From assembly GCA_021732415.1 (NCBI GenBank), contig JAKFVC010000102.1:1-64000 (forward strand): 64,000 bases of DNA, given 5' to 3'. Numbering within the stretch: position 1 is the first letter of the stretch; the number at the start of each line of letters is the position of its first letter. A model generated the notes under the pieces. The model made no database searches. It was given only the letters and a program-made list of their open reading frames with translations, and was not told the origin of the DNA. Source of the stretch: Planctomycetaceae bacterium. GTDB taxonomy: Bacteria; Planctomycetota; Planctomycetia; Planctomycetales; Planctomycetaceae. The position numbers and the translations under genes are program-made. This document shows positions 4,484 through 50,472 of the stretch, one piece after another.

Positions 4484-4880
4484 AGCCTGACTCTCCAGAG
4501 TCGGGTGAGCCCGTAATATTCTGCGTCAAAAGCGTTCGTCCCCAACGAGCTTCGCGCAGCGCACGGCACGATTTTCCTGGTCGGGTTCGCACGCTTCAAT
4601 ACGGCTTCTTATCTCACAAAACCCAGGACTCCGGGTGCCACTGGCTGTGCCAGTGCTTTGCCGGATCGGGGTTCGAAAGACTACGGGCACTGGCACAGCC
4701 AGTGGCACCCAAATTCAGTCTTATTGAAGCGCGCGAACATTGATAGCGAAATCGGGTCGTGCGCTGCGCGAAGCTCGCGAAGCTCGCGAGGGTCTTATCG
4801 TCTATTACGTCGCGGGTTACGGGCTCGGACGGGCCTGGAGACCCGTCCTACAAAGCACCCGACTCAGAGAGTCGGGCTAC
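4484..4880. repeat. Multi-layer nested palindrome, copy 1 (convergent gap)
   Basis: Five module pairs are arranged symmetrically: CCTGACTCTCCAGAGTCGGG 4485-4504 with 4858-4878; GAGCCCGTAA 4507-4516 with 4817-4826; CGAGCTTCGCGCAGCGCACG 4546-4565 with 4758-4777; CGCTTCAATA 4592-4601 with 4721-4730; and the central stem 4632-4657 with 4685-4710 (GGGTGCCACTGGCTGTGCCA and complement). A GGACGGGCCTGGAGACCCGTCC unit at 4827-4848 appears on the right side only. It fills the gap between two converging genes. Copies 2 and 3 are at 9385 and 50121. Confidence 0.9.
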
Positions 4881-4890
4881 GGGAAATCGA

Positions 4891-6741
4891 TCAGATCGAT
4901 TTCAAGAACCGTACCAGATCCGCCAAGTCTTGTTGACTGAGCACCGTCGCCCCGGGGTGATTGTAGTCCTCGAAGACGCTCTCTAACGATTCGGCTCGAT
5001 TGTCGTGGAAAAAGCGTGTTCCCTGGCTGACGCCGCGCAATGAGGGCGGGTTGAATTTCGCTAAGCCACGCTCATCGGTGAGGCCCACTTCGTAGCTCTC
5101 GTGCGAGGCATACACGATCGGCGGAATGTGGCAATTCTGGCAATGTTGCGCTTCGAAGATCTTTTGGCCTCGATCGATGCTGGCTTGGTCGGCGGCGTCG
5201 ATGGCGTGCGGCAGCACCGCTGGCGGAGGCGGCAGCGTGTGGAGATACGAAACAATGTCGCGAATCTCTTCGGCATTGATCTTCGCTCCATGCATGCTTT
5301 CGATCAGCGACTTGCGGACTTGATCGTGCAGGCTGACGACTTCACCATTCCAGGCCCAGCGGTACGTGAAGGCCGTCCCGAGCAGCGTCAGCGTCCGCTT
5401 GGGAGTTCCATACGAGTTATCCCCCAAGGTATCTGCCAGACGCCCATTCGAATGCCCGTCGGGATGGCAACTGTGACAACTGAGCCACCCGTCGCGAGAC
5501 AGCCGCGCATCAAAAAAGAGGCGTTCTCCGCGATTCTTCGGTAACAACGAAGGTTGCGGCCCCAGTGATATCGTCCGGTCGACAATCTGTTGATCGATAT
5601 CGGCCAGTGAGACACTATCGTCGAGCTGATTCAACACCGCGACCTGTGAGGTTCCCGGTCGCGGAATGACTGCCACAGGTCGTTGTCCCACCGCGGTCCG
5701 CGCCATCGTGACTGACCCGGCATGCACGTGAGAGACCACTCCGACTTGCTGCACGCCGGACAACGCGACCACCAGACGATCGCCTTTCAGCCAAGCCACT
5801 CCGGCGGGATCTCCGGCCCCCGCGCGAGACTCGCCCAGCGGCAGTACCGTACCGGTTTGAGACGCATTTCCGGTAGTTTGATGTCCGGCCTTCACCAGCG
5901 AACTCAAAGGCAAAACTCGCACGACATTCTGCATCAACTGGCCGAGTTCGATGTTCTCTTGGGTTGTCGGTAAATGCTCATTGAGAATCTGCTGAGCCAG
6001 CACGATCTTTTGCCCATCGGGAGACAGGATCAAACCTCGCGTGTTGTGGCCGCTCATCTCCTGACTGGCCAGAATCTTCCCCGAGGCCAGTTCCACAACC
6101 GCCAGTCCGCCGCCGAATCCATCCGCCACAATGACCCGTTGGCCATCTGGCGTCAGGCATTGCAGACGGGGGGCGAAGGGGAGCATCACGCGATGTCGCA
6201 GAAGTGGGGAAAAACTGTCGCCGTTCGTGTTGAGATCCATAATTTCCACACAATGCGACCACAATGCCGCCACAACGGCGCGGCGGCCATCAGGCGTGGC
6301 GACGACATGGATGGCCCCGGAACTCACGGGAAATCGAGACTCCACCCGGACAGATTCGCGCGTGACGTGGAGCAGCAGGAGCTCGTGGTTCGCTTCGTCC
6401 ACTGCCAGCAGCCGAGTTCGATCGGGGAGCGTCGCCAGACTGACGAGACTCTTGGCAAGCTTCCATTCGCCGAGAACTTCGCCTTGCTCGACATCAATCA
6501 GAGAGAGACTGCCGCTGATTTGATTCGCGATGCAGAGGGTGCGGTTGTCGGGCAGAAATACCGCCGATACTGGTCGTCGCAAATGCGATTCGGCTGGTGA
6601 TTTGACAGAAGAACCGGGCCGCGATTGGCCTCGTAAAGCGGCCTGTTGAATTGCAATCATGACCATCAAAACCACGACGAATCCGGCAACCCAATATGGG
6701 ATGCGCAACACCGACGACAAGGATGGGTATGATCGAAGCAT
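4891..6741 (-). CDS. Membrane-anchored beta-propeller / di-heme cytochrome c fusion
   Basis: A 616-residue protein. Residues about 8-30 form an N-terminal membrane anchor. A YVTN/YncE-like beta-propeller follows (about 45-390), then a cytochrome c peroxidase/MauG-like half with two CxxCH heme sites, CHSCH near residue 422 and CQNCH near 534. It should sit in the periplasm on the membrane and transfer electrons or oxidise a substrate; which one is not shown. The ATG at 6741 is chosen because the 44 residues upstream in frame are encoded by the inverted repeat at 6772-6874 (RPVR...GLETRPT peptides) and the anchor starts just after it. Such propeller plus cytochrome fusions are frequent in planctomycetes. 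Confidence 0.85.
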   Translation of the reverse strand: MLRSYPSLSSVLRIPYWVAGFVVVLMVMIAIQQAALRGQSRPGSSVKSPAESHLRRPVSAVFLPDNRTLCIANQISGSLSLIDVEQGEVLGEWKLAKSLVSLATLPDRTRLLAVDEANHELLLLHVTRESVRVESRFPVSSGAIHVVATPDGRRAVVAALWSHCVEIMDLNTNGDSFSPLLRHRVMLPFAPRLQCLTPDGQRVIVADGFGGGLAVVELASGKILASQEMSGHNTRGLILSPDGQKIVLAQQILNEHLPTTQENIELGQLMQNVVRVLPLSSLVKAGHQTTGNASQTGTVLPLGESRAGAGDPAGVAWLKGDRLVVALSGVQQVGVVSHVHAGSVTMARTAVGQRPVAVIPRPGTSQVAVLNQLDDSVSLADIDQQIVDRTISLGPQPSLLPKNRGERLFFDARLSRDGWLSCHSCHPDGHSNGRLADTLGDNSYGTPKRTLTLLGTAFTYRWAWNGEVVSLHDQVRKSLIESMHGAKINAEEIRDIVSYLHTLPPPPAVLPHAIDAADQASIDRGQKIFEAQHCQNCHIPPIVYASHESYEVGLTDERGLAKFNPPSLRGVSQGTRFFHDNRAESLESVFEDYNHPGATVLSQQDLADLVRFLKSI

Positions 6742-6771
6742 CAAGAGCGATACGAGACAGAAGGGTGAAAC

Positions 6772-6874
6772 CGTGGGACGGGTCTCCAGGCCCGTCCGTC
6801 CGGCCAATCTACCAGCAAAACAATTTTCCGATCGCTTTCCAAACTGACGGACGGGCCTGGAGACCCGTCCCACG
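6772..6874. repeat. Inverted repeat, GTGGGACGGGTCTCCAGGCC family
   Basis: Arms at 6773-6800 and 6846-6873 with about 45 bases between. Same family as the outer modules at 9385, 33150, 37345, 47698 and 50121. It lies between two genes read in the same direction on the minus strand and creates a false N-terminal extension of the downstream reading frame. Confidence 0.9.
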
Positions 6875-6913
6875 ACACGCCGTGGCCGACTCTGCTCGCG
6901 TTGATACTGAATG

Positions 6914-7933
6914 CTAAATTGCGACGACTTCTGACTGGCCGGTCTGGATCGACCTGTCGATCGATTCCATCAGCAGCAGGACCCGTTGAATCGACTCCGA
7001 CGTCACCGAAAAATCTTCCGCGTCCGCGTTCTGAATCGCGGCCGCTAATGAATTGTAGAAGGCTGACTGGTCAGTGGAAACTTCTTCGACTGGGACATCG
7101 ATCAATTCGTAGTCGGTGCCCGACCGATATCGCTTGCCATCGGCGAACCCGGCCACGGTCCCATCGAGAACCCAGCCGGTCTCGACGGGAGCCAGGCTGT
7201 GTCGATTCAATTCCAGCCAGGCGCGACACCCGTTGGCAAACTCAATGCTGACGCAGCGGCCGGGACGATCGCTGGACTCGCGGCCGCGCCCGGTTCCCGT
7301 GGTTTGAGCCAGGACCGACACCACCGGATCAGGAACCAACTGCAACAACTCGTCGAGCATTTCGAACCACTTGGTCTGCTGCACCTGTAGTTCTCGTTGT
7401 CGGACAGGTAGCGAATCAAACCTCAGGTCCGCCGAGGTGCGTGAGGCTGTCGGCTGCAGTCCCAATTCCAGCGGCACATACTGCCGCGAGATCCGCCGGA
7501 CGTCGATGATCTGCCCGAGGTCTCCGTTCTGGACAAGCTGCTGCACGGTCTGGAACTGGCCATCCCAGCGGTGCAGGGCGGCGACGAACAGTTTGGCCGT
7601 CGAGGAGTTCTTGCCAGAATCGATCCACGACTGCCAGTCGCTGGGGCTCGCATTCATCGGCAACCCAATCAACACATGCTTGCCCGCATCCAACGCCGAT
7701 CTGATCAGCGCAGAATCGGCCTGGGGTCCAATCCAGATGAGAGCAATGCGAGGATCCTCAATGATGTCCCGCGAAGACTTGGCCGGCGATTCGAGCAGTC
7801 CGTGAGCTTTGGTCAACGGTTGATCTGAGATCGATCCAGCCAGACAGCGAAAGTCAGTCCTCAATTGCATCCGTTCGAGATGAAACAGGCCTTCCGGATT
7901 CAAATCGAGGAAGCCGACACCGATGGGGTTCAT
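6914..7933 (-). CDS. Gfo/Idh/MocA-like oxidoreductase, divergent
   Basis: A 339-residue protein resembling the Gfo/Idh/MocA dehydrogenase fold: a Rossmann N-terminus (about 1-120, GVGFLDLNPEG in the dinucleotide-loop position), the segment DAGKHVLIGLPMN matching the family's GKHVxxEKP site, then an alpha/beta C-terminal domain. The catalytic EKP lysine is replaced here (IGLPM), so activity is doubtful; it could be a degenerate family member. ATG at 7933 is chosen because the 27 codons upstream come from a repeat (MTGWKPIL peptide). No signal peptide is seen, so it is probably cytoplasmic. Upstream on the same strand of the cytochrome gene but separated from it by 170 bases of repeat. Confidence 0.7.
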   Translation of the reverse strand: MNPIGVGFLDLNPEGLFHLERMQLRTDFRCLAGSISDQPLTKAHGLLESPAKSSRDIIEDPRIALIWIGPQADSALIRSALDAGKHVLIGLPMNASPSDWQSWIDSGKNSSTAKLFVAALHRWDGQFQTVQQLVQNGDLGQIIDVRRISRQYVPLELGLQPTASRTSADLRFDSLPVRQRELQVQQTKWFEMLDELLQLVPDPVVSVLAQTTGTGRGRESSDRPGRCVSIEFANGCRAWLELNRHSLAPVETGWVLDGTVAGFADGKRYRSGTDYELIDVPVEEVSTDQSAFYNSLAAAIQNADAEDFSVTSESIQRVLLLMESIDRSIQTGQSEVVAI

Positions 7934-7989
7934 GGTCTCTCGCAAGTGGTCTGACGATCGTGGCCGCATCCTGAGATTGTATTGCCTCC

Positions 7990-8042
7990 GTAGGATAGGC
8001 TTCCAGCCTGTCATTCTTTTGTTCTGGGATGACAGGCTACAG
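7990..8042. repeat. Short inverted repeat GACAGGCTGGAAGCCTATCC family
   Basis: AGGATAGGCTTCCAGCCTGTC at 7991-8011 faces GATGACAGGCTAC at 8028-8040. A related single copy lies at 53709-53734. Confidence 0.65.
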
Positions 8043-8072
8043 CGAATTCACTCGGTGATTGCGCAATCGAAA

Positions 8073-8178
8073 GTGTATGAGAGTTTGAGGGTGCGAGAGT
8101 AACGGGGTACGAGTTCAGCCCGAATTCGATTTGAATTATTCCTCACTCTCATACCCTCACACACTGGAACTCTCACAC
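8073..8178. repeat. Inverted repeat with GAGAGT octamer-phased arms
   Basis: The left arm (8073-8100) has GAGAGT-like words every 8 bases; the right arm (8145-8178) is its complement (ACTCTC words, TCACAC end). Same family as 16046-16151. It fills most of the gap between a minus-strand gene start and the next plus-strand gene. Confidence 0.8.
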
Positions 8179-8332
8179 CGACACTTGGCGCAAACGATTC
8201 GTTGAAGTGCTATAAAACCTAAGAGAAACCCACATTCTCCCCTCCAGTCTCTTGGCCGCGGGCCACCCTTTTTGCATAATCACATCAGAGTTTGTTGACG
8301 TTTGATTGTCCCCCAGCAGGAAAGCCCCTTTT

Positions 8333-9382
8333 ATGCGGCACGCTTCAAAATTGAGCTTTGGTCGAATCTGTCGTCTGGTCGCCGTAGCACTCGGTCTGCT
8401 GGTGGGTGGAACGGCGGCCCTCCGTGCTGACGATGCGCCTAAGGTGATTCGCGTGGGAATCATCGGCCTCGACACGTCGCACGTGATCGCTTTTACCAAG
8501 ATGCTGAATGATCCCAAGGCTGAAGCCGACGTCGCCCATTGCCGCGTGGTCGCCGCTTACCCGAAGGGGAGCCCCGATATCGAGTCGAGCACCAGTCGCG
8601 TGCCCGGCTACACCAAAGAGGTCGTTCAGATGGGTGTGGAGATCGTGGATTCGATCGAAGTGCTGCTGACGAAAGTGGACGCCGTCCTGCTGGAAACCAA
8701 TGATGGACGCCCTCACCTCGAACAAGTCATGCCGGTCCTGAAAGCGGGCAAACCGGTCTTTATCGACAAGCCGATCGCCGCCAGCTTGACCGATGCGGTC
8801 GCCATCTTCGAAGCGGCTAAGAAATACAAAGTGCCGATGTTCTCCTCGTCGTCACTGCGATTTTCGAAGAATGCTCAGGCCTTGAGAAACGGGAAGCTCG
8901 GGAAGATCACCGGCTGCGATGCCTTCAGCCCGTGCTCGTTGGATCCGACGCATCCTGATCTCTACTGGTACGGGATTCATGGCGTCGAGACCCTCTTCAC
9001 GGTAATGGGCACCGGATGCCAGCAAGTCAGCCGGGCCTCGACGACGCACTACGAGCTGGCCCTGGGAGAATGGAAGGACGGCCGCCTGGGTACGTTCCGC
9101 GGCATTCGTTCGGGGGGCGGAGGCTACGGCGGAACGGCGTTCGCGGAGAAAGGAGTCGAACCGATCGGCGGCTATGACGGTTACCGCCCGTTGCTCGTCG
9201 AAATCGTGAAGCTGTTCCGCACAGGTGTCGCGCCCGTCAGCGAAGAAGAGACGCTCGAAATCTATGCCTTCATGCAGGCTGCGGACGAAAGCAAACGCCA
9301 GGGGGGGGCACCGGTCAAATTGGCCAGCGTGATGGAAAAAGCCCGCGCGGAGGCCGCCGAGAAGCTGAAGAAATTTGAATAG
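8333..9382 (+). CDS. Exported Gfo/Idh/MocA family oxidoreductase
   Basis: A 349-residue protein with an N-terminal signal peptide (hydrophobic core about residues 14-32, cleavage likely after LRA) followed by a Gfo/Idh/MocA domain. The Rossmann start VGIIGLDTSH and the GKPVFIDKPIAAS segment with the family's DKP lysine are present. Exported members of this family are common in planctomycetes and usually act on sugars or sugar derivatives; the substrate here is unknown. ATG at 8333 (AGGAA upstream) is preferred to TTG at 8306. The gene ends in the nested palindrome at 9385. Confidence 0.85.
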   Translation: MRHASKLSFGRICRLVAVALGLLVGGTAALRADDAPKVIRVGIIGLDTSHVIAFTKMLNDPKAEADVAHCRVVAAYPKGSPDIESSTSRVPGYTKEVVQMGVEIVDSIEVLLTKVDAVLLETNDGRPHLEQVMPVLKAGKPVFIDKPIAASLTDAVAIFEAAKKYKVPMFSSSSLRFSKNAQALRNGKLGKITGCDAFSPCSLDPTHPDLYWYGIHGVETLFTVMGTGCQQVSRASTTHYELALGEWKDGRLGTFRGIRSGGGGYGGTAFAEKGVEPIGGYDGYRPLLVEIVKLFRTGVAPVSEEETLEIYAFMQAADESKRQGGAPVKLASVMEKARAEAAEKLKKFE

Positions 9383-9384
9383 GG

Positions 9385-9730
9385 TGTCGTGGGACGGGTC
9401 TCTGACCCGTCTGAGCCCGTAACCGGCGACGTAATACAAATTAGTCCCTCGCGAGCTTCGCGCAGCGCACGACTCGTATCAATCAATACGGCCTCTTATC
9501 TCATAAGAACCCAGGATTCCGGGTGCCACTGGCTGTGCCAGTGCTTTGTCGGATCGGGTGTCGAATGACTATCGGCACTGGCACAGCCAGTGGCACCCGA
9601 TTTTTGGCCTTATTGAAGCGCGCGGACCTCGCTAGAGAAATCGTGCGCTGCGCGATGCTCGAGAGGGATGAATGTTTTGGGGAGCAGAATGTTACGGGCT
9701 CAGACGGGTCGGAGACCCGTCCCACGATAC
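9385..9730. repeat. Multi-layer nested palindrome, copy 2 (convergent gap)
   Basis: Module pairs in order from outside: GTGGGACGGGTCT...GACCCGTC 9388-9411 with 9702-9726; GAGCCCGTAAC 9413-9423 with 9691-9700; GCGAGCTTCGCGCAGCGCAC 9451-9470 with TCGTGCGCTGCGCGA 9641-9655; CAATACGGCC about 9484 with TATTGAAGCG 9611-9620; central stem 9529-9555 with 9575-9598. It fills the gap from stop codon to stop codon almost exactly. Confidence 0.9.
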
Positions 9731-9735
9731 GTTCG

Positions 9736-10563
9736 CTACACATCCGCTGGCGGATGCCACGTTCCCCAATGGCTGAGGTAATGGGCATAGGCCGGCGACG
9801 TCGCGGCCTGTTCCTGCAGCCAGGTGTGGGTTTCCGCGACGAGCTTTTGTTCGTCGTCGAGCTTCAACTTGCCCAGCAGAACCTGCGTGCGCAGGAAAAC
9901 GAAATAGGTATCGAGGACATCGCAGCGGCAATAATCGTTGATCTCCTGGGCTTTGCCCGCGAGGTACATGTCCTGGACCTGTGACCCGTCGACTCCGCTT
10001 TTTCCCGGCTTGCCGATCAGGTTGGCCAGCAAATTCAGTCCGCCGACTAATCGGGCGGCTCCATAATTGGAGATCAGGTCGTGCAGGTCGACGTGGGCTC
10101 CCATGTTGAAGCGATTACGGGCCTGGTCGAAGGATTTGTCGTCGTAGTTGAACCAGCCCGGCAGGCTGATTCCATATCGAAAAGCCGCGAGTTCCATCAG
10201 GGGGATGTCGTAGCCGCGGCCGTTGAAGGTGACCAGCGTCGGCCGTCCGTAATGCATCCAGCCTTGCCAGAACTTCTTGGTAATAATGTGGGAACGGTAG
10301 GCGGGAGCATCCAGTACTGTCAGGTCGGTCAGCCGAAATCCGGCGTCCACTTTGCCGATCGCGACTGAAATAGGCAGCATGAACGTGTGGGGGATAAAAT
10401 CTTTGCCATCGCCGCGCTCAGCGACCAGTTCCTGGCGATAGCGGGCAATGGCCTCGTTCGGTTTGAGGTTCTCTTTCGGATAGCGAATCTTGGCGATCAG
10501 TTCGCCATCCGCCACGGCTTCCGTATCAAAAATCAGGTAGCTGGGTTTGGCGGGCTGATCCAT
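9736..10563 (-). CDS. Predicted 3'-5' exonuclease, PolB exonuclease-like
   Basis: A 275-residue DEDD-type nuclease. The three exonuclease motifs are visible: Exo [10 protein letters not shown] near the N-terminus, Exo [12 protein letters not shown] in the middle, and Exo [12 protein letters not shown] (YxxxD form) towards the C-terminus. This matches the family annotated as predicted 3'-5' exonuclease related to the exonuclease domain of DNA polymerase B, with no polymerase domain attached. It probably trims or proofreads DNA in the cytoplasm. ATG at 10563 has GAGG at good spacing; the 8 residues upstream lack support. Single gene. Confidence 0.85.
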
Positions 10564-10710: not shown

Positions 10711-10790
10711 CGTGAGCGGTACGGCGCTAGCCGCCGGTTTATCAAGGGAAATCGATACACAGAACCGGTGGCTAGCGCCATTCCGCTCAC
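10711..10790. repeat. Inverted repeat, GTGAGCGGNNNGGCGCTAGC family
   Basis: Arms 10711-10739 and 10763-10790 (GGCGCTAGCCGCCGGTT and AACCGGTGGCTAGCGCC). Related copies at 43264, 46652 and 53598. Located in the divergent gap before the SRPBCC gene. Confidence 0.85.
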
Positions 10791-10809
10791 AAAGTAAGAA
10801 AGATACTCG

Positions 10810-11265: not shown

Positions 11266-11267
11266 TC

Positions 11268-12457: not shown

Positions 12458-12826
12458 TCGGGCGGAGGACAGCCGCTATTTGGTGGGGGTATTTGGAACC
12501 GCCCCCGTTGGGCTTGTCCCAACGGAGCGCTGACTGGTCAGCTACCCAGCAGTGAGTTTTGCAGAATTCTCAACCTTTACGTCTCCGATGCCCCCTGCCG
12601 CCAGCCAGTCGCTGCTGTGACAACGGTTCGCTCACGGCGGCAGGGGACATCGGAGACCACGCGTTGAGGGTCAAGAACGTTGCTCTCTAGTAGCTGGCAA
12701 GTCACCGCTCCGTTGGGACAAGCCCAACGGGGGCGACAAAACACGGCAATTCCGCGTTTCACTGTGACACAGTCACCCCGAATCTAAAAATTATTCCCCA
12801 CCAAATAGCGGCTGCGCCCGCCCCTG
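12458..12826. repeat. Three-layer nested palindrome
   Basis: The outer pair is CAGCCGCTATTTGGTGGGG at 12470-12488 with its complement at 12796-12814; the middle pair CGCCCCCGTTGGGCTTGTCC at 12500-12519 with 12716-12735; the inner pair GTCTCCGATGCCCCCTGCCG at 12581-12600 with 12638-12657. It lies between two minus-strand genes and accounts for most of the 520-base gap. Confidence 0.88.
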
Positions 12827-14860: not shown

Positions 14861-14993
14861 AGGGAGGGCGAGGCTCCCGCCGAGCCTAAGGCGACCGCAG
14901 GTCGGCGTCCGCCGGAGGCCGGGACGTTGAAATGCCTCCGGCGGACGCCGAGCTAAAGCTCGTATTAGGCTCGGCTGGAGCCTCGCCCTCCCA
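14861..14993. repeat. Inverted repeat, GGGAGGGCGAGGCTCC / CGGCGTCCGCCGG family
   Basis: Outer arms 14861-14889 and 14966-14993; inner arms GGTCGGCGTCCGCCGGAGGC at 14900-14919 with 14934-14953. A flipped relative is at 20564-20691. In the 1-kb divergent gap 14403-15426; beyond this element and the 14585 repeat I see no gene there. Confidence 0.85.
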
Positions 14994-20563: not shown

Positions 20564-20691
20564 GGGAGGGCGAGGCTCCTGCCGAGCCTAACACGAGCTC
20601 TAGTTTGGCGACCGCCGGATGCATTCCTCGGGGCCTCCGGCGGACGCCGACCTGCGGTCGTCTTAGGCTCGGCAGGAGCCTCGCCCTCCCA
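20564..20691. repeat. Inverted repeat, GGGAGGGCGAGGCTCC family, flipped copy
   Basis: Outer arms 20564-20592 and 20663-20691. The left inner part (CGAGCTCTAGTTTGGCG...) matches the reverse complement of 14934-14970, so this copy has the opposite orientation to the one at 14861. Confidence 0.85.
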
Positions 20692-31399: not shown

Positions 31400-31499
31400 A
31401 TTTTGCTCCAGGATCAGTTCATTGGCCGTTGAGCATATTGGCGGATCAGATAGAGTGGTGAGAATCAGGATGCGCCAAGGGTATGGGGCATTCGGGCTG

Positions 31500-31585
31500 A
31501 TGGGAGGGTGAGGCTCCTGCCGAACCGCATAGTCTGGTGAAGTTCGATAGACGCTTGCGGTTCGGCAGGAGCCTCACCCTCCCAT
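31500..31585. repeat. Inverted repeat, GGGAGGGTGAGGCTCC family
   Basis: Arms 31500-31530 and 31556-31585; the loop (TAGTCTGGTGAAGTTCGATA before GACGCTTGCGG) matches the copy at 2311-2396. The rest of the gap 31400-31670 has no gene. Confidence 0.88.
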
Positions 31586-31670
31586 GAAGCCGATTCTGAA
31601 AATCAAGCGTGCAAATTCCACTGAAAGCAGCGCTCCGTAATCGATTCCAAAGCAGTTCAGGAGAACTTTG

Positions 31671-33149: not shown

Positions 33150-33393
33150 CGTGGGACGGGTCTCCAGGCCCGTCCGTCCAGCAGAACTGCCGGAAATACG
33201 ATCTTCCACCCCAGATCTTCGTGTCCTTCGTGATCTTCTGTGACAAATCTTTTTAAACAGAAGGTCACAAAGGACGCGAAGGATTGGATTGTCAAAGTCG
33301 CGGTTGCCTCGCGGTATCGGCCATTACGCTATCGCGATTCTTAACCGTACGACCGGGGGGGACGGACGGGCCTGGAGACCCGTCCCACGATAC
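33150..33393. repeat. Nested inverted repeats filling a convergent gap
   Basis: Outer GTGGGACGGGTCTCCAGGCC at 33151-33170 with its complement at 33369-33388; inner ATCTTCGTGTCCTTCGTGAT at 33214-33233 with its complement family at 33263-33284. The gap between the two stop codons is 255 bases and the element takes almost all of it. Confidence 0.9.
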
Positions 33394-33395
33394 CC

Positions 33396-34208
33396 TTACG
33401 CCTCAGCCACGGCCCGCATCTTTTCCAGGCCGACGCGGGCAACTTCATACGGATCGCTGGCCCAGAGGTCTTCGCGGAAGAGTTCCAGCGACAGCCAGCG
33501 GAAGTACCCCACTTGTCGCAACAGTTTCAGCAGTCGGGCCAGATCCAGATGTCCGTCTCCCGGATACACGCGGCTGTGATCGTGTTGTTGCAGGCGGGGC
33601 GGCTGGGCCGGTGTGTCGTTGAAGTGACAGATGGCGATCTGCTCGGGCTTCAGCTTGGCGATGCTTTCAACTGATCCGCCGCCCCGGAAGATATGGAACG
33701 GATCAAGCACGAGCGTCCCCTGGGGATGGTCGGCCTTGGTGATGATTTCCAAAGCCGAGTCGATCGTGTTGAGGTCTTCGACAAATCCCAGGAACTCCAT
33801 CGACGGCTTCACCCCGATACGGAGCCCCAGTTCCAGCAGTTCGCGATAGTTGCGAGCTCCCTGATCGTGATTGGCAAAGCCCATCGGTGGGCCGGCGATG
33901 ACATGCACGGCCCCCACTTCGACCGCCTGCTCCATCCGCCGCTGGCATTCGACCAGCTCAACACGGTGTTCTTCACCGGTCGTTTCGAACCAGCCCTTCA
34001 GATAGATCGTCGTCGGGACAGTCAGTCCATTGTCGGAGAGAGCCTTGCGGACTTCAGCCAGCGTGCCGCCGCGGGCAATGTGTGCATCCAGATCATCGTG
34101 CCACAGCTCAATGGCTTTGTAGCCCACTTTGCCGGCAATCTGGATCTTTTCGAGCACGGGGGTGGGGCGGATCGTGCTGCAATTTAGCGTATAGATGAAG
34201 TCACTCAT
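33396..34208 (-). CDS. Sugar phosphate isomerase/epimerase (TIM barrel)
   Basis: A 270-residue protein of the xylose-isomerase-like TIM-barrel family. Metal-ligand Glu, Asp and His lie in KAIELWHDDLDAH, MEFLGFVED, LVLDPFHIFRGG and ICHFNDTP. It should isomerise or epimerise a sugar or sugar acid in the cytoplasm. ATG at 34208 with GAGGA upstream is chosen; 20 upstream codons are unsupported. Single gene. Confidence 0.88.
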   Translation of the reverse strand: MSDFIYTLNCSTIRPTPVLEKIQIAGKVGYKAIELWHDDLDAHIARGGTLAEVRKALSDNGLTVPTTIYLKGWFETTGEEHRVELVECQRRMEQAVEVGAVHVIAGPPMGFANHDQGARNYRELLELGLRIGVKPSMEFLGFVEDLNTIDSALEIITKADHPQGTLVLDPFHIFRGGGSVESIAKLKPEQIAICHFNDTPAQPPRLQQHDHSRVYPGDGHLDLARLLKLLRQVGYFRWLSLELFREDLWASDPYEVARVGLEKMRAVAEA

Positions 34209-37340: not shown

Positions 37341-37344
37341 CGAG

Positions 37345-37518
37345 CGTATCGTGGGACGGGTCTCCAGGCCCGTCCGTCCCGTAGCGTGATCTTTGTGATG
37401 TTCTGTTAAAAAGAATTGGAACAGAAGATCACAAAGGACACGAAGGTCTCTTTGCAAAACGGGTGGTGAAAGCGCTCTCGGCGGGACGGACGGGCCTGGA
37501 GACCCGTCCCACGGTACG
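37345..37518. repeat. Nested inverted repeats filling a convergent gap
   Basis: Outer GTGGGACGGGTCTCCAGGCC at 37351-37370 with complement at 37493-37512; inner GATCTTTGTGATGTTCTGTT at 37387-37406 with AACAGAAGATCACAAAGGAC at 37420-37439. Takes the whole 178-base gap between two stop codons; same two-family combination as 33150-33393. Confidence 0.9.
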
Positions 37519-39174
37519 CTACGGCGTCGTCGCCACCACTTCATGCTGGCGCAGGTAATGATCATCCACCGGATAGTTCGAGAACTGCAGCGTGTAGTAT
37601 TTCTCAAACCATTCCTGGATATGCGGCGTGTGTGATTCATCCCATTCGGGAGCCACGTGCAGCAACTTGCCCTCGGGGGTGGCCCGGATCTCCCCTTGTT
37701 CCACGACGATTTGGCCGTTTTGAATGACCACGCGCGGGAGCTCGAACATCAACTGTATATCGGGATTCGGCGTGTAAATCGTCACGTCCGCGTCCGCACC
37801 GACGCCCAGGTGCCCCTTGTGTTTCAACCCCAGGATTCGTGCTGGGCTGGCTCGAGTGATGATGGCGATTTCGTTCAGCGAGTATTCGCGATCAATATCG
37901 GGCAACGTACAACGTTCTTTCACACGCGGATGCATGCGCGAGAGAACCTCGCGCCGACGCTCCTTGGACATCAACAGGGCGATGATTTCCGGGTAGGCCA
38001 TGAACGAACCACCGTTGGGATGATCGGTACTCATGCCGACACGCCACGGATCGTCCATCAGCAGATACCACTCCAAGCCAATCGCCCATTGCAGACCATG
38101 GACCATGCTTTTGTCTTTGTAGACGATGGGGACGATGCCGCAACCCGATTCCATTTCGCTATCGCCCGAAAACCACTTGCGGCCGGTGACCTTGTGCAGG
38201 AAGTAACCGAGCGGTCCGTCACCCGTCATCGAGGTCGTTTCCGAAAACATGACCTGCCCGACATCGACGGTGATATTGGGATGGCTGTTCACGTATTCGA
38301 CCAGCTTGGGGACCTCTGAGCAGAACGTGCTCTGCACATCAGGATCACCGCCATAGCTGTGGAATTGAATGTGAGTCAGGTGTCCGCGACGTCCTTCCAG
38401 CGCCTTCATCGTCTCCAGCGTCGTGGACCAGTTACCGGGCATCCCCAGATTGTTGCAATGGATATGCACAGGGTGGGGCAGGCCGAGTTCTATCGCCGCC
38501 TGAGCAATGCTGGAAATGATCTGCCGCGGGGTCACTTCGAAATGGCTGACCATGTCGTCCAGGCCATGCACATTTCCGCCACCCGACTTCCAGACTTCCA
38601 CGCCACCGGGGTTCACGATCTTGGCCGCGTAGCCCTTGGTCGAATTGAGCAGCCAGCCGACATACGCCTTCAGCCGTTCGGGCTCGCCTTTCTGGATTTG
38701 CTCCATGATGTAGTGATTGTTGCCCATCAGCACAAAGAAGCCTTTGTCGATGATGGGAGTATCACGTAACTCTTCATGAGCATGCCGGGCAGCCAGCGCC
38801 GGAATGGCCGCATCGAACGCGGTCGTGTAGCCCAAGCCGGCATATTTGTAGCCGGTGGCAAACGTGCTGGGCACGCTGCCCATGGTGCCCGAGCGAGTCG
38901 ACTGGGTACGGACAACCTTCTCGGCCAGCCGCTTATCATCCGGCATCATTTTGCGGGCCACGTTCACCTTCGGACCAGCGATATGGCAATGCATATCGAC
39001 GCCCCCGGGCATCACGCACAGCCCCTCGGCATTAAAGATCCGCGACGGTTTGACCGCCGGATCGGTGGGCGCGGCGATGACCTTCCCAGCCTCAATCCAA
39101 ATATCGCGCACTTCACCGTCAATGCCATTGGCGGGGTCATAAACGGTACCACCGGCAATCTTGAACAAACTCAC
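37519..39174 (-). CDS. fhcA: Formylmethanofuran dehydrogenase subunit A (FhcA/FwdA)
   Basis: A 551-residue amidohydrolase-fold subunit of the formyltransferase/hydrolase complex that moves C1 units between tetrahydromethanopterin and formate. The zinc motif is VDMHCHIAG; the later His, Asn and Lys positions lie in GYAAKIVNPGG and HIHCNNLG; GADADVTIYTP at the C-terminus is the amidohydrolase tail. Planctomycetes are known to carry this archaeal-type C1 pathway. The partner genes fhcB, fhcC and fhcD are not in the window. GTG at 39174 is chosen (AGG upstream), with GTG at 39186 as an alternative. Cytoplasmic. Confidence 0.88.
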   Translation of the reverse strand: MSLFKIAGGTVYDPANGIDGEVRDIWIEAGKVIAAPTDPAVKPSRIFNAEGLCVMPGGVDMHCHIAGPKVNVARKMMPDDKRLAEKVVRTQSTRSGTMGSVPSTFATGYKYAGLGYTTAFDAAIPALAARHAHEELRDTPIIDKGFFVLMGNNHYIMEQIQKGEPERLKAYVGWLLNSTKGYAAKIVNPGGVEVWKSGGGNVHGLDDMVSHFEVTPRQIISSIAQAAIELGLPHPVHIHCNNLGMPGNWSTTLETMKALEGRRGHLTHIQFHSYGGDPDVQSTFCSEVPKLVEYVNSHPNITVDVGQVMFSETTSMTGDGPLGYFLHKVTGRKWFSGDSEMESGCGIVPIVYKDKSMVHGLQWAIGLEWYLLMDDPWRVGMSTDHPNGGSFMAYPEIIALLMSKERRREVLSRMHPRVKERCTLPDIDREYSLNEIAIITRASPARILGLKHKGHLGVGADADVTIYTPNPDIQLMFELPRVVIQNGQIVVEQGEIRATPEGKLLHVAPEWDESHTPHIQEWFEKYYTLQFSNYPVDDHYLRQHEVVATTP

Positions 39175-43254: not shown

Positions 43255-43263
43255 GGCTCAAAC

Positions 43264-43347
43264 TCGTGCGGCACGGCGCTAGCCGCCGGTTCTTTCGGCT
43301 TGGACGTCGTGCGGAAGAACCGGTGGCTAGCGCCATGCCGCTCACGA
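43264..43347. repeat. Inverted repeat, GGCGCTAGCCGCCGGTTCTT family
   Basis: Arms 43264-43293 and 43315-43347, related to 10711, 46652 and 53598. Confidence 0.88.
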
Positions 43348-43500
43348 ATTACGTTGCCACTGGGGACAGACTCAGCTTGAGCCATTTCCCAAGATCACGA
43401 TAATAGAATCTCTGAGCCGCATGGGGTGACAATTGCGGATCCGACCCGGTCGGGCAGGGCCGCGAATCAAATGCTGATTGGAAAGCGTATCTTCAAAATC

Positions 43501-44775: not shown

Positions 44776-44776
44776 C

Positions 44777-45124: not shown

Positions 45125-45128
45125 CGGG

Positions 45129-46631
45129 CTACGGCTTGATCGCTCGCTGCAACAGGTTCTTCGTGATCTGTTGGACTCGTTCATCGGGTCCGTGCGGACG
45201 GGTCCAATGCGACCACGGGAGAACGTGTCCTGGGGGACTGCTTAAACCTTGTGACCAGAAGATGGTTGAGGCGTTGAAGACATAGTTGTTCTTGGGGCCG
45301 AGATAAATGGTGGCGGTCCATTTCTGAGGTCGAACTCCGGCCACAAGGGCCGTCCCGCCGCCGACGATTTCCAGGCCCGGAATTTCCGGGGGATCTCCGT
45401 GATATTCCCAACCCACGAGGCCAGGGATGTGCTCGCCGGCTTTGACTCCGGTTTCGGCGAACATCCAATGGTCGGGCTTGGTGACGACCCAGTCGGCTCC
45501 GCCGTTGACCGGTTCGACGTTGCGGGCTCCCATGAGAAAACCTTCGTCGGGGCCGCGTTCGGGGAACGGGCCGTTTTTGGCTTCTCGTTCTTCGGCGTAT
45601 TTGTACTTGCCGCCGTACGGACCGCCTCGAAACATGATCCGATTGGCGCGGCCATCGCTGCTGTTGCGTAGTGGGGTCACCCAACAGACCGAGTTGCCCG
45701 ACAGGAACAGGACCGACACTCCCGAGTCTCTCAGTTTCACCACGCTATTGTATTGGCGAATATCCCAGTACTCATCGTGACCGACGCTGATCAGGCATTT
45801 GGTTTTGAGTCCGCGGTCGGGACTGATCAAGTCGCTGTTGGCGCAATACGTGACGTCATAGCCGTGCTGTTCGAGATAGTACGCCAGCGGAAATTCAAAC
45901 GGCAGATACTCGCCCGATCCGACCGACAGCGGGTCATTCACGACGCTGGTGTATTGCGCGTAGCGTCCATAGGGACGATCAAAGCTGACGTCGGCCCATG
46001 GTCCTTGATTGCCTTTGGGATGAGTGTAGACCGAGTACTTGTCGGGCCACTGATTGTAGGCCTGCCAGGTGTTGTCGGAACATTGGAACAAAACATCCGC
46101 CGGCCGGTCGTCCTTTACGATGAAGATCACATAGCTCTGCCACGCAGCGACGGTTTCATCAGGCGGAATAGTCGTCAGGCGACCGAGGTAGACCCCGCTG
46201 GGCCAGTCGGCGGGAATGGTCAATTGAGTGGACGACTTCCAGCGGCATTCGTGAAGGTTCTTGGGGCCGATCTCGGGGACAGGTTGCGGCTGGCCTTCGA
46301 ACGGGCCGAGCTTCGTCATCAGCCGGGCACCACGTCCGCCGTAATAACCGGTGCGAAAAATTTCGATCTCAAACGGCCGGGCCGGTTTCGTCGAGACCAT
46401 GATGTCGATGGTCTCACCGGCGACTACGCTTTGCTTGGAACAATAGCCTTCGATGAGCGACGTACGAACGCCGGTCGCCTCGTCGAGTTTGACTCGAGTC
46501 AGTTGCCAGTCACGAGCGCCGGGCTTGGCGTTTTCCTTGCGGATGAGCTCAGGGTCACGATCCGCGGCCCACAGTGTGGAAGCTGAGACGAGAACGTGGA
46601 CCAGCAACATCGAGGCCAACGAGCGAACCAT
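45129..46631 (-). CDS. Exported N,N-dimethylformamidase beta-subunit-like protein
   Basis: A 500-residue protein with a signal peptide (cleavage near LWA) and the C-terminal domain of the N,N-dimethylformamidase large-subunit family. Landmarks: RTGYYGGRGARLM, then SDNTWQAYNQWPDKYS, SVGHDEYWDIRQYN and LSGNSVCWV, which form the conserved core with His, Asp and Glu. In known enzymes this fold hydrolyses formamides; planctomycete members have unknown substrates. GGAG precedes the ATG. Downstream of cysE on the same strand, but a repeat separates them. Confidence 0.85.
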   Translation of the reverse strand: MVRSLASMLLVHVLVSASTLWAADRDPELIRKENAKPGARDWQLTRVKLDEATGVRTSLIEGYCSKQSVVAGETIDIMVSTKPARPFEIEIFRTGYYGGRGARLMTKLGPFEGQPQPVPEIGPKNLHECRWKSSTQLTIPADWPSGVYLGRLTTIPPDETVAAWQSYVIFIVKDDRPADVLFQCSDNTWQAYNQWPDKYSVYTHPKGNQGPWADVSFDRPYGRYAQYTSVVNDPLSVGSGEYLPFEFPLAYYLEQHGYDVTYCANSDLISPDRGLKTKCLISVGHDEYWDIRQYNSVVKLRDSGVSVLFLSGNSVCWVTPLRNSSDGRANRIMFRGGPYGGKYKYAEEREAKNGPFPERGPDEGFLMGARNVEPVNGGADWVVTKPDHWMFAETGVKAGEHIPGLVGWEYHGDPPEIPGLEIVGGGTALVAGVRPQKWTATIYLGPKNNYVFNASTIFWSQGLSSPPGHVLPWSHWTRPHGPDERVQQITKNLLQRAIKP

Positions 46632-46651
46632 GGGGAACTCCAGTTAAAAGT

Positions 46652-46735
46652 AGTGAGCGGCCTGGCGCTAGCCACCGATTCTTCCGTGCGATGTCCAACC
46701 CGACAAAACCGGCGGCTAGCGCCGTGCCCCTCACG
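46652..46735. repeat. Inverted repeat, GGCGCTAGCCACCGATTCTT family
   Basis: Arms 46652-46683 and 46706-46735. Between cysE and the dimethylformamidase-like gene on the minus strand. Confidence 0.85.
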
Positions 46736-46746
46736 AGCCGAACTTC

Positions 46747-47574
46747 TCAAATCCCACTGCCTTCTTCGTGTCGATGGGGAAACTGTTGATCCATTTCGAG
46801 AGACGGCATTTTTTCTGACAGTCGACCAACGATCCGAGACGGCACGCCTGCCACGGTGCAATGCGGTGGCACCGCATCGAGCACGACACTCCCCGCACCG
46901 ATCTTGGAGCCTTCGCCGATTTCGATATTTCCCAGCACCTTGGAGCCCGCACCAATCAGCACACCGCGCCGGACCTTGGGATGTCGGTCTCCCGAGTCCT
47001 TGCCGGTTCCGCCCAGCGTCACTTCATGGAGAATCGAGACGTCGTCCTCAATGACGGACGTTTCGCCGATCACGATGCTCGTCCCATGATCCATCATGAC
47101 CCCCGAACCAATCTTCGCCGCGGGGTGGATGTCGACCCCGAACACTTCAGAAATCCGGTTCTGAAAATGAAACGCCAGCAACTGCCGGTCGTGCGCCCAC
47201 AGCCAATGCGCCACTCGATACGACTGGAGTGCCTGAAATCCCTTGAAAAACAGGAACGGAATCAGGAAGCCGCGCGAGGCCGGGTCGCGATCGCGAATCG
47301 CCCGCAGGTCGTTGCGAATCGATTCCCCGACCGTCGGGCACGATCCGTAAGCCTGATCGAACAGCGACCGCAACAATGCCGGATTGACGCATTCGGTCGC
47401 CAGCTTCGAGCACAATAACTGGGCGAGCGCGTCTTCGAGACGGCGGTTCTTGAGAATCGTCTGTGTTAAAAACTGCCGCAGAAAGGGATCTCGTTCTTCT
47501 TCGGACCAGGCTTCTGCGCGAATGGCCGTCCAGATGGGATCGGCTTGTTGAGATTGAACGCTATTAGCTGGCAT
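46747..47574 (-). CDS. cysE: Serine O-acetyltransferase
   Basis: A 275-residue enzyme that makes O-acetylserine from serine and acetyl-CoA, the first step of cysteine synthesis. The N-terminal half is helical (about 1-140); the C-terminal half is a left-handed hexapeptide helix. Catalytic Asp and His are in DIHPAAKIG and MMDHGTSIVIGET; the acetyl-CoA loop is HEVTLGGTGKDSGDRHPKV. The C-terminus lacks the usual terminal Ile of classical CysE regulation but ends GSGI. Single gene. Confidence 0.93.
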   Translation of the reverse strand: MPANSVQSQQADPIWTAIRAEAWSEEERDPFLRQFLTQTILKNRRLEDALAQLLCSKLATECVNPALLRSLFDQAYGSCPTVGESIRNDLRAIRDRDPASRGFLIPFLFFKGFQALQSYRVAHWLWAHDRQLLAFHFQNRISEVFGVDIHPAAKIGSGVMMDHGTSIVIGETSVIEDDVSILHEVTLGGTGKDSGDRHPKVRRGVLIGAGSKVLGNIEIGEGSKIGAGSVVLDAVPPHCTVAGVPSRIVGRLSEKMPSLEMDQQFPHRHEEGSGI

Positions 47575-47697
47575 CAGAAATCATTGTCTCCACTTTGCAA
47601 TTGCGCGGACCTGCGTTGAAATTCAACACTGCTGCCGATCACCAGCCTATCGCTGTCTGCGCCGGGTGTCGACTGTGCGACGTGTCGTAACGCGTAT

Positions 47698-47906
47698 CGT
47701 GGGACGGGTCTCCAGGCCCGTCCGTCCAGCAACTCGTAGCTTGTCTCTCCAGAGTCGAGCGAATTCAGTGCGACTCGAGCAGCGATAAAGAGTTCCTGCG
47801 GCCGTCGATACGAATGTTCGATTCGTTGATCTACGGAGTTCGCCCGACTCTGGAGAGTCAGGCTACGATGGGGACTGACGGGCCTGGAGACCCGTCCCAC
47901 GATACG
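47698..47906. repeat. Nested inverted repeats (GGGACGGGTC outer, CCGACTC inner)
   Basis: Outer CGTGGGACGGGTCTCCAGGC at 47698-47717 with complement at 47883-47902; inner TAGCTTGTCTCTCCAGAGTC at 47737-47756 with CCCGACTCTGGAGAGTCAGG at 47843-47862. In the 423-base divergent gap between cysE and dppD. Confidence 0.88.
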
Positions 47907-47997
47907 CTGGTGTGGACACGCTGTCTCTTTTCCGTTACAGCATAATTGAATTGATCCACCAAACCGCTCTCTGAGAACTTCCACCCCGGGAGGCGAA

Positions 47998-49029
47998 ATG
48001 GCTGAGCCGCCGCCGTTGCTAGCTGTCGACAATCTGCGAACTTACTTTAACACCGAGTTCGGTGTCGCGCGGGCCGTGGATGGAGTCAGCTTTTCGATTT
48101 CTGCCGGCAAGACTCTGGCCGTCGTCGGCGAGAGCGGCTGCGGAAAAACCGTGACGGCGCTCAGTATCCTGCAGTTGGTGCCGATGCCTCCCGGTCGGTT
48201 CGAAAGCGGCGAGATCCGCTTTCAGGGAAAAAATATCCTCGGCTTGTCCGCCAGTGAGCTCCGCAAACTGCGCGGTGGCGACATCGCCATGATCTTTCAA
48301 GAGCCGGCCACCAGCCTGAATCCGGTCTTCACGATCGGCTTCCAAGTCGGCGAGGCCATCCTGCTGCATCGTCCGGAAGTCCCGCGGAACAAGGTCCGGG
48401 ATGAGGTCTTGAAAGCGCTGCGGTCGGTGCATGTCAGTGACCCCGAGCGGCGCCTCGATCAGTATCCGCATGAAATGTCGGGGGGCATGAAGCAGCGGAT
48501 CATGATCGCCATGGCTCTGGCGTGCAAACCGCAACTGTTGATCGCCGACGAGCCGACGACCGCCGTGGACGTGACCATTCAGGCCCGGATTCTCGATCTC
48601 CTGCGCGACATCCAGGCCGAACATCACATGGCCATTCTGTTGATCACGCATGATCTGGGAGTCGTGGCGGAACTCGCCGATGATGTCGTGGTGATGTATG
48701 CCGGCAAGGTGATCGAACAGGCGCCGGTCCACGAGCTGTTCGACAATCCGCGGCATCCTTATACGCTCGGATTGTTTGCCAGCCTGCCGCGAGTGGATGA
48801 GACCAAGACTCGGCTGGAAACGATCGAAGGGAGCGTCCCGCCGGCGACCCACTTCCCCGAGGGTTGTCGCTTTCGTGAACGTTGCAAATGGGCTGGCCCA
48901 GACTGCACCAAGGAGCCGCCCTTGTTGCAGATTGGCGGCGGGCATGCCGTCGCCTGCTGGTATCACGACACCATCGCCAGTCAACGAGCTGTCAGCTCAG
49001 GAGCCGCCAGTCCAGGAGCCAACCGATGA
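47998..49029 (+). CDS. dppD: Oligopeptide/dipeptide ABC transporter ATPase, DppD-like
   Basis: A 343-residue ATPase subunit that drives peptide import. Walker [10 protein letters not shown]-loop QEPATSLNP, signature [10 protein letters not shown], Walker [14 protein letters not shown] and switch His ITHDLG are present. The C-terminal oligo_HPN Cys-rich domain has [23 protein letters not shown] five bases before the ATG. Overlaps dppF by ATGA. No permease or binding-protein gene is near. Confidence 0.93.
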
Positions 49030-50117
49030 CAACTGCCACTCCCGCTGCCGCGAAATCCTCGGCAGTGCCTCCCCGTCCGACCCCGAGTGCGGATGTGTTG
49101 CTGAAAGTCACGAATCTCGTCAAGCATTTTCCCGTGCGCGGCGGAGTCTTCCGGACCGTCAAGGACTGGGTGAAAGCTGTCGACGGGGTTAGTTTTCAGA
49201 TTGATGCGAGCCAGACGATGGGCCTCGTGGGCGAAAGCGGCTGCGGCAAGACGACCGTCGGCCGGTCCCTGCTGCGACTGATTCCGGGAGCCACCGGCGA
49301 AGTCCTCTACAACGGCGTTGATCTCCTGGGCTTGAGCCGTGCGCAACTCCGGCCATTGCGCGAACACCTGCAGATCATCTTTCAAGACCCGTATGGATCA
49401 CTCAATCCTCGTATGACGATCGCCCAGATCGTCGGCGAGCCACTGAGTCTGCACCAGCGGCTGCGCGGTAAGGCTTTGCGGACGGAAGTCTCGCAATTGA
49501 TTGAAACGGTGGGCTTGAAGTCACACGTCCTGGATCGCTATCCGCATGAATTCTCCGGCGGACAGCGGCAGCGAATCGGGATCGCTCGGGCCATCGCCTT
49601 GAAGCCGTCATTCATCGTCTGCGATGAACCAACGAGTGCCCTGGATGTCTCGATCCGAGCCCAGATCGTGAACTTGCTGCAAGATCTGCAGCAGTCGCGA
49701 GGCTTGAGCTATTTGATGATCAGCCACGACCTGGGTGTCGTCCGGCACATCAGCCAGAATGTGGCGGTGATGTACTTGGGAAAAATCGTCGAGCAGGCGC
49801 CGACCGAAGATCTCTATCAGAACGCCCGGCACCCTTACACGGCGGTGTTGCTGTCGGCGATTCCTGTTCCCAATCCCAAGCTGCGAGCGGACGCTCGCCA
49901 GCGGGTGCGGACGCAGGATACGGAGGATTCGGTCCCGTCACCGATCCGCGTCCCGAGCGGTTGTGCGTTTCATCCGCGTTGCCCGCTGTATGCGGCGAAA
50001 GGGAAGCCCGAGCAGTGCAGGGCGTCAATGCCCGAGTTGCTGCCGCTGGCTGGCAATCCGCAGCATGTGGTGCGGTGTCATTTCCCGGAAGATTCGGTCT
50101 TCTCGGTCACGAAGTGA
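49026..50117 (+). CDS. dppF: Oligopeptide/dipeptide ABC transporter ATPase, DppF-like
   Basis: A 363-residue second ATPase of the same transporter. Walker [11 protein letters not shown], signature FSGGQRQRIGIAR, Walker B SFIVCDEPTSALDVS, ISHDLG, and the C-terminal Cys cluster CAFHPRCPLYAAKGKPEQC. ATG at 49026 overlaps the dppD stop, so the two are translationally coupled; a longer upstream frame is disregarded. It ends at the third nested palindrome. Confidence 0.93.
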   Translation: MTTATPAAAKSSAVPPRPTPSADVLLKVTNLVKHFPVRGGVFRTVKDWVKAVDGVSFQIDASQTMGLVGESGCGKTTVGRSLLRLIPGATGEVLYNGVDLLGLSRAQLRPLREHLQIIFQDPYGSLNPRMTIAQIVGEPLSLHQRLRGKALRTEVSQLIETVGLKSHVLDRYPHEFSGGQRQRIGIARAIALKPSFIVCDEPTSALDVSIRAQIVNLLQDLQQSRGLSYLMISHDLGVVRHISQNVAVMYLGKIVEQAPTEDLYQNARHPYTAVLLSAIPVPNPKLRADARQRVRTQDTEDSVPSPIRVPSGCAFHPRCPLYAAKGKPEQCRASMPELLPLAGNPQHVVRCHFPEDSVFSVTK

Positions 50118-50120
50118 CGG

Positions 50121-50472
50121 TCTCGTGGGATGGGTCTCCAGGCCCGTCTGAGTGCCGTAACATTTGACTTGGCAGAGATTCGACCCTGTGGAGCTTCGCG
50201 CAGCGCACGGCCGGAGTTGGTCAAATGAGTCCCAAACGCTTCAATAAGCCAGAATTCGGGTGCCACTGGCTATGCCAGTGCTCGCAGTCTTTCGACACCC
50301 GGTCCGGCCAAGCACTGGCACAGCCAGTGGCACCCAGAAGAAGAGTTTATTGAAGCGAAACACACTGTTCGCACATATCTTGCCGTGCGCTGCGCGAAGA
50401 TCGCGGGGGTTGATCATGTGTCATGTCGCTGGTTACGGCACTCGGACGGGCCTGGAGACCCATCCCACGATC
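50121..50472. repeat. Multi-layer nested palindrome, copy 3 (convergent gap)
   Basis: Pairs from outside: GTGGGATGGGTCTCCAGGCC at 50125-50144 with complement at 50448-50467; GAGTGCCGTAAC 50150-50161 with GTTACGGCACTC 50432-50443; GGAGCTTCGCGCAGCGCACG 50190-50209 with 50383-50398; CGCTTCAATAA 50238-50248 with TTTATTGAAGCG 50346-50357; central stem TTCGGGTGCCACTGGC from 50256 with 50311-50335. Same order as copies 1 and 2. Confidence 0.9.

What the first reader, a model, noticed from the sequence alone, without database searches (positions are those of the whole stretch)
4484..50472. Same multi-layer palindrome in three convergent gaps
Copies at 4484-4880, 9385-9730 and 50121-50472 share the same module order (GGGACGGGTC, GAGCCCGTAA, GCTTCGCGCAGCGCAC, GCTTCAATA, GGGTGCCACTGGCTGTGCC) and its mirror image. 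All three lie between converging genes, almost stop codon to stop codon. Each arm is diverged between copies but pairing within a copy is kept, which points to selection or gene conversion on the folded form.
Basis: seen in the sequence. Interest (0 to 1): 0.8.

Follow-up and report, generated by a model that had tools for sequence, protein, structure and literature searches.

The report
Nested palindromes from transposase-linked hairpin elements
The three long palindromes are real and belong to a genome-wide set of small hairpin-forming mobile elements that sit one inside another, sharing their end sequences with IS200-like (HUH/Y1) transposase genes, and they settle just after gene ends; they look like layered mobile DNA rather than a gene-end device kept for its shape.

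Summary
In detail: three ~350-400 bp concentric palindromes lie stop-to-stop between convergent genes (z of -16 to -19 against shuffles). They are not a special class of convergent-gap element. In this 9.9-Mb Planctomycetaceae genome each layer is a separate repeat family: layer A has about 600 sites, layer E about 250, layer C about 120. Layer A is also the terminal inverted repeat of a Y1 (HUH) transposase gene in this genome. Layer E is the terminal repeat of a Y1 transposase clade in relatives. Other layered palindromes in the window match the frames of further Y1 genes.

The parts recombine. About half of the sampled C frames have an empty centre; most others carry the E unit at the exact centre. 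A sister species has 15 C frames and 15 E units, never combined. At two orthologous sites the same frame is empty, or holds a different core, in the sister species. The gap of copy 3 is empty there.

Elements abut gene 3' ends (36/37 within 30 bp), in tandem gaps as well. Best reading: nested, non-autonomous REPIN/TIR elements of Y1 transposases, a known kind; concentric exchangeable cores appear undescribed.

The parts
4484..4880 (.). Copy 1: layered palindrome. K hairpins at both ends (4484-4508, about 4856-4880), B 4506, C 4549-4564 / 4759-4774, E unit 4633-4710, A only on the right arm (about 4833-4853)
   Evidence: fold z -18.1
9385..9730 (.). Copy 2: full A-B-C frame with the E unit in its centre; C 9455-9470 / 9643-9658, E unit 9521-9598
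   Evidence: fold z -18.7; the sister species has a K-type palindrome at the same place
50121..50472 (.). Copy 3: A-B-C frame with the E unit inverted relative to copies 1-2; C 50193-50208 / 50385-50400, E unit 50258-50335
   Evidence: fold z -16.5; empty site in G003 (19-bp gap) and lone A hairpin in G002
6772..6881 (.). A frame with a short unrelated centre
33150..33396 (.). A frame enclosing core M (TTCGTGATCTTCTGT..ACAGAAGGTCACAAAGG), convergent gap
37343..37520 (.). A frame with core M, convergent gap; left end identical over 39 nt to the terminal repeat of the Y1 transposase gene in L043
47692..47908 (.). A frame enclosing core K (the layer that is outermost in copy 1), so layer order is not fixed
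   Evidence: K flanks the Y1 transposase in L042
62076..62336 (.). Three-layer palindrome with the same layers and spacing as those around the Y1 transposase gene of L035, without the gene ('hollow' counterpart)
   Evidence: arms 78% and 74% identical
12500..12735 (.). I-family frame, 93-94% identical to the frame of the Y1 transposase gene of L041, holding another palindrome as core

Best explanation
The palindromes are layered, non-autonomous mobile elements of the REPIN / TIR-repeat kind, related to Y1 (HUH, IS200-like) transposases of the RAYT/TIRYT type. Several layers (A, K, and E in relatives) are inverted pairs of short hairpin repeats that also serve as terminal inverted repeats of Y1 transposase genes. 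The ~220-bp A-B-C 'frame' and the ~118-bp D-E 'core' are separate building blocks. The composite arises when a core lands at the centre (hairpin tip) of a frame, and cores are gained or exchanged at a standing frame. Mobilisation as folded single strands by the cognate transposase, and insertion at the hairpin tip, are inferred. Shared ends with transposase genes, separate existence of the parts, concentric nesting and core differences at orthologous frames are shown. Elements persist just behind stop codons probably because such sites tolerate insertion; any effect as a 3'-end RNA hairpin would be secondary.
For: Layer A is the terminal inverted repeat of a Y1 gene in this genome (L043), identical over 39 nt to an element in the window. 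Families G, I and K flank Y1 genes L035, L041 and L042. The Y1 loci inspected nearly all show flanking inverted repeats, often layered. Layer E flanks a Y1 gene in G020 (L114), and 22 of 30 loci of this gene family have terminal inverted hairpins against 0 of 30 shuffled, most with a GGGTGCCA/GGGTGGCA-like head; motif HxH is present, and Tyr in most that the pattern caught. Of 41 sampled C frames, 20 have no inner unit and 21 a larger centre (17 with a confirmed E pair); outer spacers are alike in both classes. Nesting is concentric (E in C: median offset 1 bp; no interleaving). E also sits in an unrelated frame (Z) or with little frame. In sister G003, 15 C frames and 15 E units never coincide. 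At one orthologous site G003 has the same frame without E (L343 vs L309); at another the same frame with a different core (L347 vs L102). The copy-3 gap is empty in G003.
Against: No transposition was observed. No target-site duplication could be read at the one clean empty site. No gene with C as its terminal repeat was found. E units here lack a cognate transposase in the 98%-complete assembly (closest L036, other repeat). No two elements exceed ~89% identity, so there is no sign of very recent movement. Core and frame divergences are uncorrelated (Mantel r = -0.17 and 0.08), which fits independent insertion but also saturation. The age of the composites is unclear, since cores and spacers differ more among copies than orthologous flanks do between species. 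Direction (gain here or loss in G003) was not polarised with an outgroup.
Confidence: 0.78

Rival explanations
1. Bidirectional transcript-end structures: the palindromes are kept by selection for folding at gene 3' ends, as terminators or 3' stabilisers of converging mRNAs.
For: Outer ends a median of 11 bp behind stop codons, excess in convergent gaps, very stable folds, modules conserved while spacers diverge.
Against: No within-copy covariation of spacers. Orthologous convergent gaps in sister species are empty or hold other families. No excess of terminator-like sites with T runs in the 8-kb stretch around copies 1-2 (8 found, 7.7 expected). The same layers surround transposase genes. More than half lie in tandem gaps.
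Confidence: 0.12
2. One old long-inverted-repeat MITE that amplified as a single ~350-bp unit; the 'layers' are only its conserved binding sites, and copies without a core are deletions.
For: Module spacing and concentric position are nearly constant; outer spacers show common descent of all frames.
Against: Frames and cores exist separately, and only separately in G003. A core is present or absent on the same orthologous frame, and another core sits on a second orthologous frame. E occurs in the unrelated Z frame. Core and frame divergences are uncorrelated.
Confidence: 0.13
3. Gene conversion between the two arms, or between dispersed copies, maintains the palindromes.
For: A+B ends are more alike within a copy than between copies (0.878 vs 0.839, 0/2000); some elements have chimeric arms.
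Against: Most of the arm shows no within-copy excess. Conversion would not produce other families in the same gap or cores present in one species only.
Confidence: 0.07

Closest known systems
REPtrons / RAYTs and REPINs (REP doublets; Bertels & Rainey 2011 PMC3116915; Nunvar 2010 PMC2817692; Corneloup 2021 PMC8266576)
   Same: Inverted pairs of short hairpins, hundreds of extragenic copies, shared with the flanks of a Y1 transposase gene; several families per genome each with its own transposase; placed behind gene 3' ends.
   Different: Several families nested concentrically, elements up to ~350-400 bp, unpaired spacers of near-constant length, cores that differ on a standing frame; head motifs of E and C are not GTAG-like.
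TIRtrons / TIRYTs and their TIR repeats (Di Nocera 2013 PMC3733652)
   Same: Y1 transposase genes inside long, sometimes double, terminal inverted repeats that also occur as dispersed dimers; many were noted for R. baltica, a planctomycete.
   Different: Here TIR dimers of different transposases are stacked in each other with frame/core differences shown at orthologous sites; the passages read report no such system, though they note REP dimers inside longer palindromes in A. variabilis, T. roseum and H. neapolitanus.
IS elements that insert at a fixed point of REP palindromes (IS1397, IS621, ISPsy8; PMC1525189)
   Same: Palindromes act as specific landing sites for a second mobile element, giving nesting.
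   Different: Here the inserted unit is itself a non-coding palindrome, sits at the dyad centre, and is of the same general kind as its host.
Class 3 TnpAY1 genes of Planctomycetes and Acidobacteria (PMC6006769)
   Same: Planctomycete Y1 genes flanked by several unusual hairpins present in high copy number.
   Different: No nesting or cassette exchange was described in the passages read; whether the genes here belong to that class was not tested.

Membership tests
TIRtron / TIRYT with dispersed TIR repeats | Y1 (HUH) transposase gene flanked by long terminal inverted repeats | tested here: met
   13 PF01797 genes in the genome, nearly all with flanking inverted repeats; layers A, G, I and K are such repeats; E in relatives
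TIRtron / TIRYT with dispersed TIR repeats | The same repeats occur as a dispersed family without the gene, often as inverted dimers | tested here: met
   A about 600 sites, E about 250; window elements match the frames of L035, L041 and L043
TIRtron / TIRYT with dispersed TIR repeats | HUH motif and catalytic tyrosine in the transposase | tested here: met
   L043 MPNHVH and YIGRN; the E-clade homologues caught by the pattern have MPEHxH and mostly Tyr, but Asp in L114 and L283 and His in L291; the other loci were not caught by the pattern
REPIN / BIME (REP doublet) | Inverted pair of 20-40 nt hairpin repeats with a conserved spacer, intergenic, high copy number | tested here: met
   E unit: 78 bp with a conserved centre found in both orientations; almost no in-gene copies
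REPIN / BIME (REP doublet) | GT[AG]G-type tetranucleotide 5' of the hairpin | tested here: inconclusive
   A has GTGG directly before its stem; E (GGGTGC head) and C do not
REPIN / BIME (REP doublet) | Cognate transposase present in the same genome | tested here: inconclusive
   Met for A (L043); no cognate found in this genome for E (only L036 matches, with another repeat) or for C
REPIN / BIME (REP doublet) | Transposase cleaves and rejoins the repeat as single-stranded DNA | not testable with these tools
   needs biochemistry
DDE-type MITE | Target-site duplication at the insertion | tested here: inconclusive
   None visible at the copy-3 site against the empty G003 site, but this is one site in two diverged species
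Intrinsic bidirectional terminator | G+C-rich stem followed by a T run, on both strands | tested here: not met
   8 terminator-like sites found, 7.7 expected in 3-11 kb, one weak match inside copy 2; copy 3 not scanned

The most novel reading that the evidence does not exclude
A single-strand transposition system whose preferred target is the exact dyad centre (hairpin tip) of other palindromic elements, so that standing frames act as docking sites in which cores from different transposase families are repeatedly gained and swapped, building Russian-doll palindromes.
Probability: 0.35. Interest if true: 0.75.

Novelty: new variant of a known kind. Interest (0 to 1): 0.55.

Why it matters
It links a large, unannotated class of planctomycete intergenic palindromes to identifiable Y1 transposases, and it provides natural pairs (same frame without a core, or with a different core) that make REP/REPIN dissemination, which is still poorly understood, testable in a genome rich in families. 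If tip-targeted core exchange is confirmed, it would be a new targeting mode for HUH transposases. It also cautions against reading gene-end palindromes as terminators.

Tried and rejected
Rfam scan of the window: only two tRNAs. Compensatory-change hypothesis: tested by permutation and rejected for the spacers. Convergent-only rule: rejected. Vertical conservation at orthologous gaps: not seen. Co-amplification of core with frame as one unit: no correlation, but low power because the spacers are near saturation. Target-site duplication: none seen at one site. Terminator T runs: no excess. PHROGs gave no family for the L043 transposase.

Full report
Observation. Folded as single-stranded DNA they are 16 to 19 standard deviations more stable than shuffles. 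Two details differ: copy 1 carries another hairpin (K) at both ends and lacks module A on the left, and copy 3 has its central unit inverted.

Organism and scale. The window lies in a 9.87-Mb, 350-contig, 98%-complete genome. The closest named relatives by a window protein are Planctomycetaceae MAGs: RYN_439, LH-05nov19-189 (titled Planctomicrobium piriforme) and RYN_440. Genome-wide there are about 606 sites of layer A (<=3 mismatches), 250 of layer E (<=3) and 122 of layer C (<=1), with reversed-pattern controls of 0 or 1.

Building blocks. The A-B-C 'frame' occurs without any inner unit (C to c' span 77-91 bp) about as often as with an enlarged centre (155-226 bp): 20 and 21 in the sample; 17 of the latter carry a confirmed E pair. 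Outer spacers are equally similar within and across the two classes (0.468, 0.459, 0.465), and inner spacers are above the shuffled level (0.36 vs 0.25), so both are the same frame. The E unit is 78 bp with a conserved, non-palindromic centre present in both orientations. It also occurs inside an unrelated frame (AGGCGAGCGTCCGGCGTAAGCCGGATGG, called Z), in elements with one foreign arm, and with little frame. Nesting is concentric: E centres on C frames with a median offset of 1 bp and on Z frames of 0.5 bp (two cases), and no pairs interleave. In 15 of the 17 confirmed cases the offset is within 5 bp (distances). A frames elsewhere in the window enclose other cores (K at 47692-47908; M at 33150-33396 and 37343-37520).

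Link to transposases. The genome has 13 genes with the Y1_Tnp domain. Nearly all lie between inverted repeats, often in several layers. Layer A is the terminal repeat of the gene in L043; its left end is identical over 39 nt to the element at 37343 in the window. Families G, I and K flank the genes in L035, L041 and L042. The three-layer palindrome at 62076-62336 has the same layers in the same order as those around the L035 gene but no gene, and the frame at 12500-12735 is 93-94% identical to that of L041. The E repeat directly flanks a Y1 gene in another genus of the family (L114). Of 30 loci of that gene family, 22 have terminal inverted hairpins against 0 of 30 shuffled; most keep a GGGTGCCA/GGGTGGCA-like head while the stem changes with pairing kept, as expected of co-evolving transposase and repeat. 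This genome itself lacks a close E-type gene; the only match is L036, which has a different repeat.

Position. In a 1.07-Mb sample with 730 called genes, 40 C-frame elements fall 15 in convergent, 22 in tandem and 3 in divergent gaps, none in genes. The outer end is a median of 11 bp from a stop codon, 36 of 37 within 30 bp, against 48% for random placement in the same gaps. A behaves alike (57 of 63), K less strictly (16 of 22). So the rule is 'just behind a gene end', and the three convergent cases in the window are partly luck.

If pairing were maintained while arms diverge, left and right arms of one copy should resemble each other more than arms of different copies. For the spacers they do not (0.642 vs 0.642; 0.582 vs 0.581; 41 copies, 2000 permutations). 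Only the A+B ends show an excess (0.878 vs 0.839, 0 of 2000), and that is weak in an ungapped version. Pairing mostly reflects conserved short modules shared by all copies.

Orthologous sites. The gap of copy 3 is an empty 19-bp gap in sister G003 and holds a lone A hairpin in G002. The gap of copy 1 holds a different palindrome family in G003, and that of copy 2 a K-type palindrome. At another locus G003 has the same frame without the E core that this genome has (L343 vs L309), and at a third the same frame with a different core (L347 vs L102). In the G003 loci collected, 15 C frames and 15 E units never coincide, whereas in this genome 29 of 38 sampled E units have a C module on at least one side (this sample was partly chosen by C sites); in G002 0 of 20 E units do.

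Mechanism. Shown: shared ends with Y1 transposase genes, separate existence of frame and core, concentric nesting, core differences at orthologous frames, absence at orthologous gaps. Inferred: that the transposases move the units as folded single strands, as in-vitro work on REP supports for E. coli (PMC8266576), and that cores land at the hairpin tip. Whether each composite is an independent insertion or some spread as units is open: core and frame divergences are uncorrelated, but the spacers are near saturation and no two elements exceed about 89% identity.

Known or new. REPs, REPINs and TIRtrons are known, Planctomycetes are among the phyla with them, and placement behind gene ends is typical (PMC3733652, PMC3116915, PMC6006769). 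REP dimers inside longer palindromes have been noted in three bacteria, and IS elements that target REPs at a fixed point are known (PMC1525189). I found no description, in the open-access library searched, of stacked families with exchangeable central cores; subscription papers were not available. Hence a new variant of a known kind.

Noticed in passing
window 54206-61801: A 2531-aa open frame with 336-bp internal repeats (59224-60846), probably a large repetitive surface or extracellular protein.
   Followed up: no
L114:1161-1844, L283, L291: Some E-type Y1 transposases have Asp or His where homologues have the catalytic Tyr, suggesting decayed copies beside intact ones.
   Followed up: partly
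window 2301-2410, 31490-31599, 61881-61990, 14862-14993, 20564-20691: Another palindrome family (F, GGGAGGGTGAGGCTCC..), 46 pairs in the sample, less tied to stop codons (15/39 within 30 bp); no transposase identified for it.
   Followed up: partly
L037, L038 (G000:C1:49482 and 52274): Two Y1 transposase genes with identical search scores about 2.8 kb apart, with short AAAGGGGACAGGTCCATT repeats.
   Followed up: no
L039: A Y1 transposase gene beside several copies of GGGGTCGAGCCTTCAAATTTCAAAATTGGCC; a similar repeat lies at one arm of an E element in L334.
   Followed up: no
window 535-695: A further inverted repeat (42-nt arms, AT-rich, ATGACTAATGTCTAAA) outside the families studied.
   Followed up: no
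window 10761-10796, 43270-43350, 46648-46740: Palindrome family H/J (GGTGGCTAGCGCC); it occupies the copy-1 gap in G003 and a similar one is the core of one G003 frame (L347).
   Followed up: partly
L391-L420 (G002): In G002 the E units are 71-77 bp and many are flanked by TAGTGCTT..TCA ends instead of the C frame, a possible ancestral outer end of the E element.
   Followed up: partly
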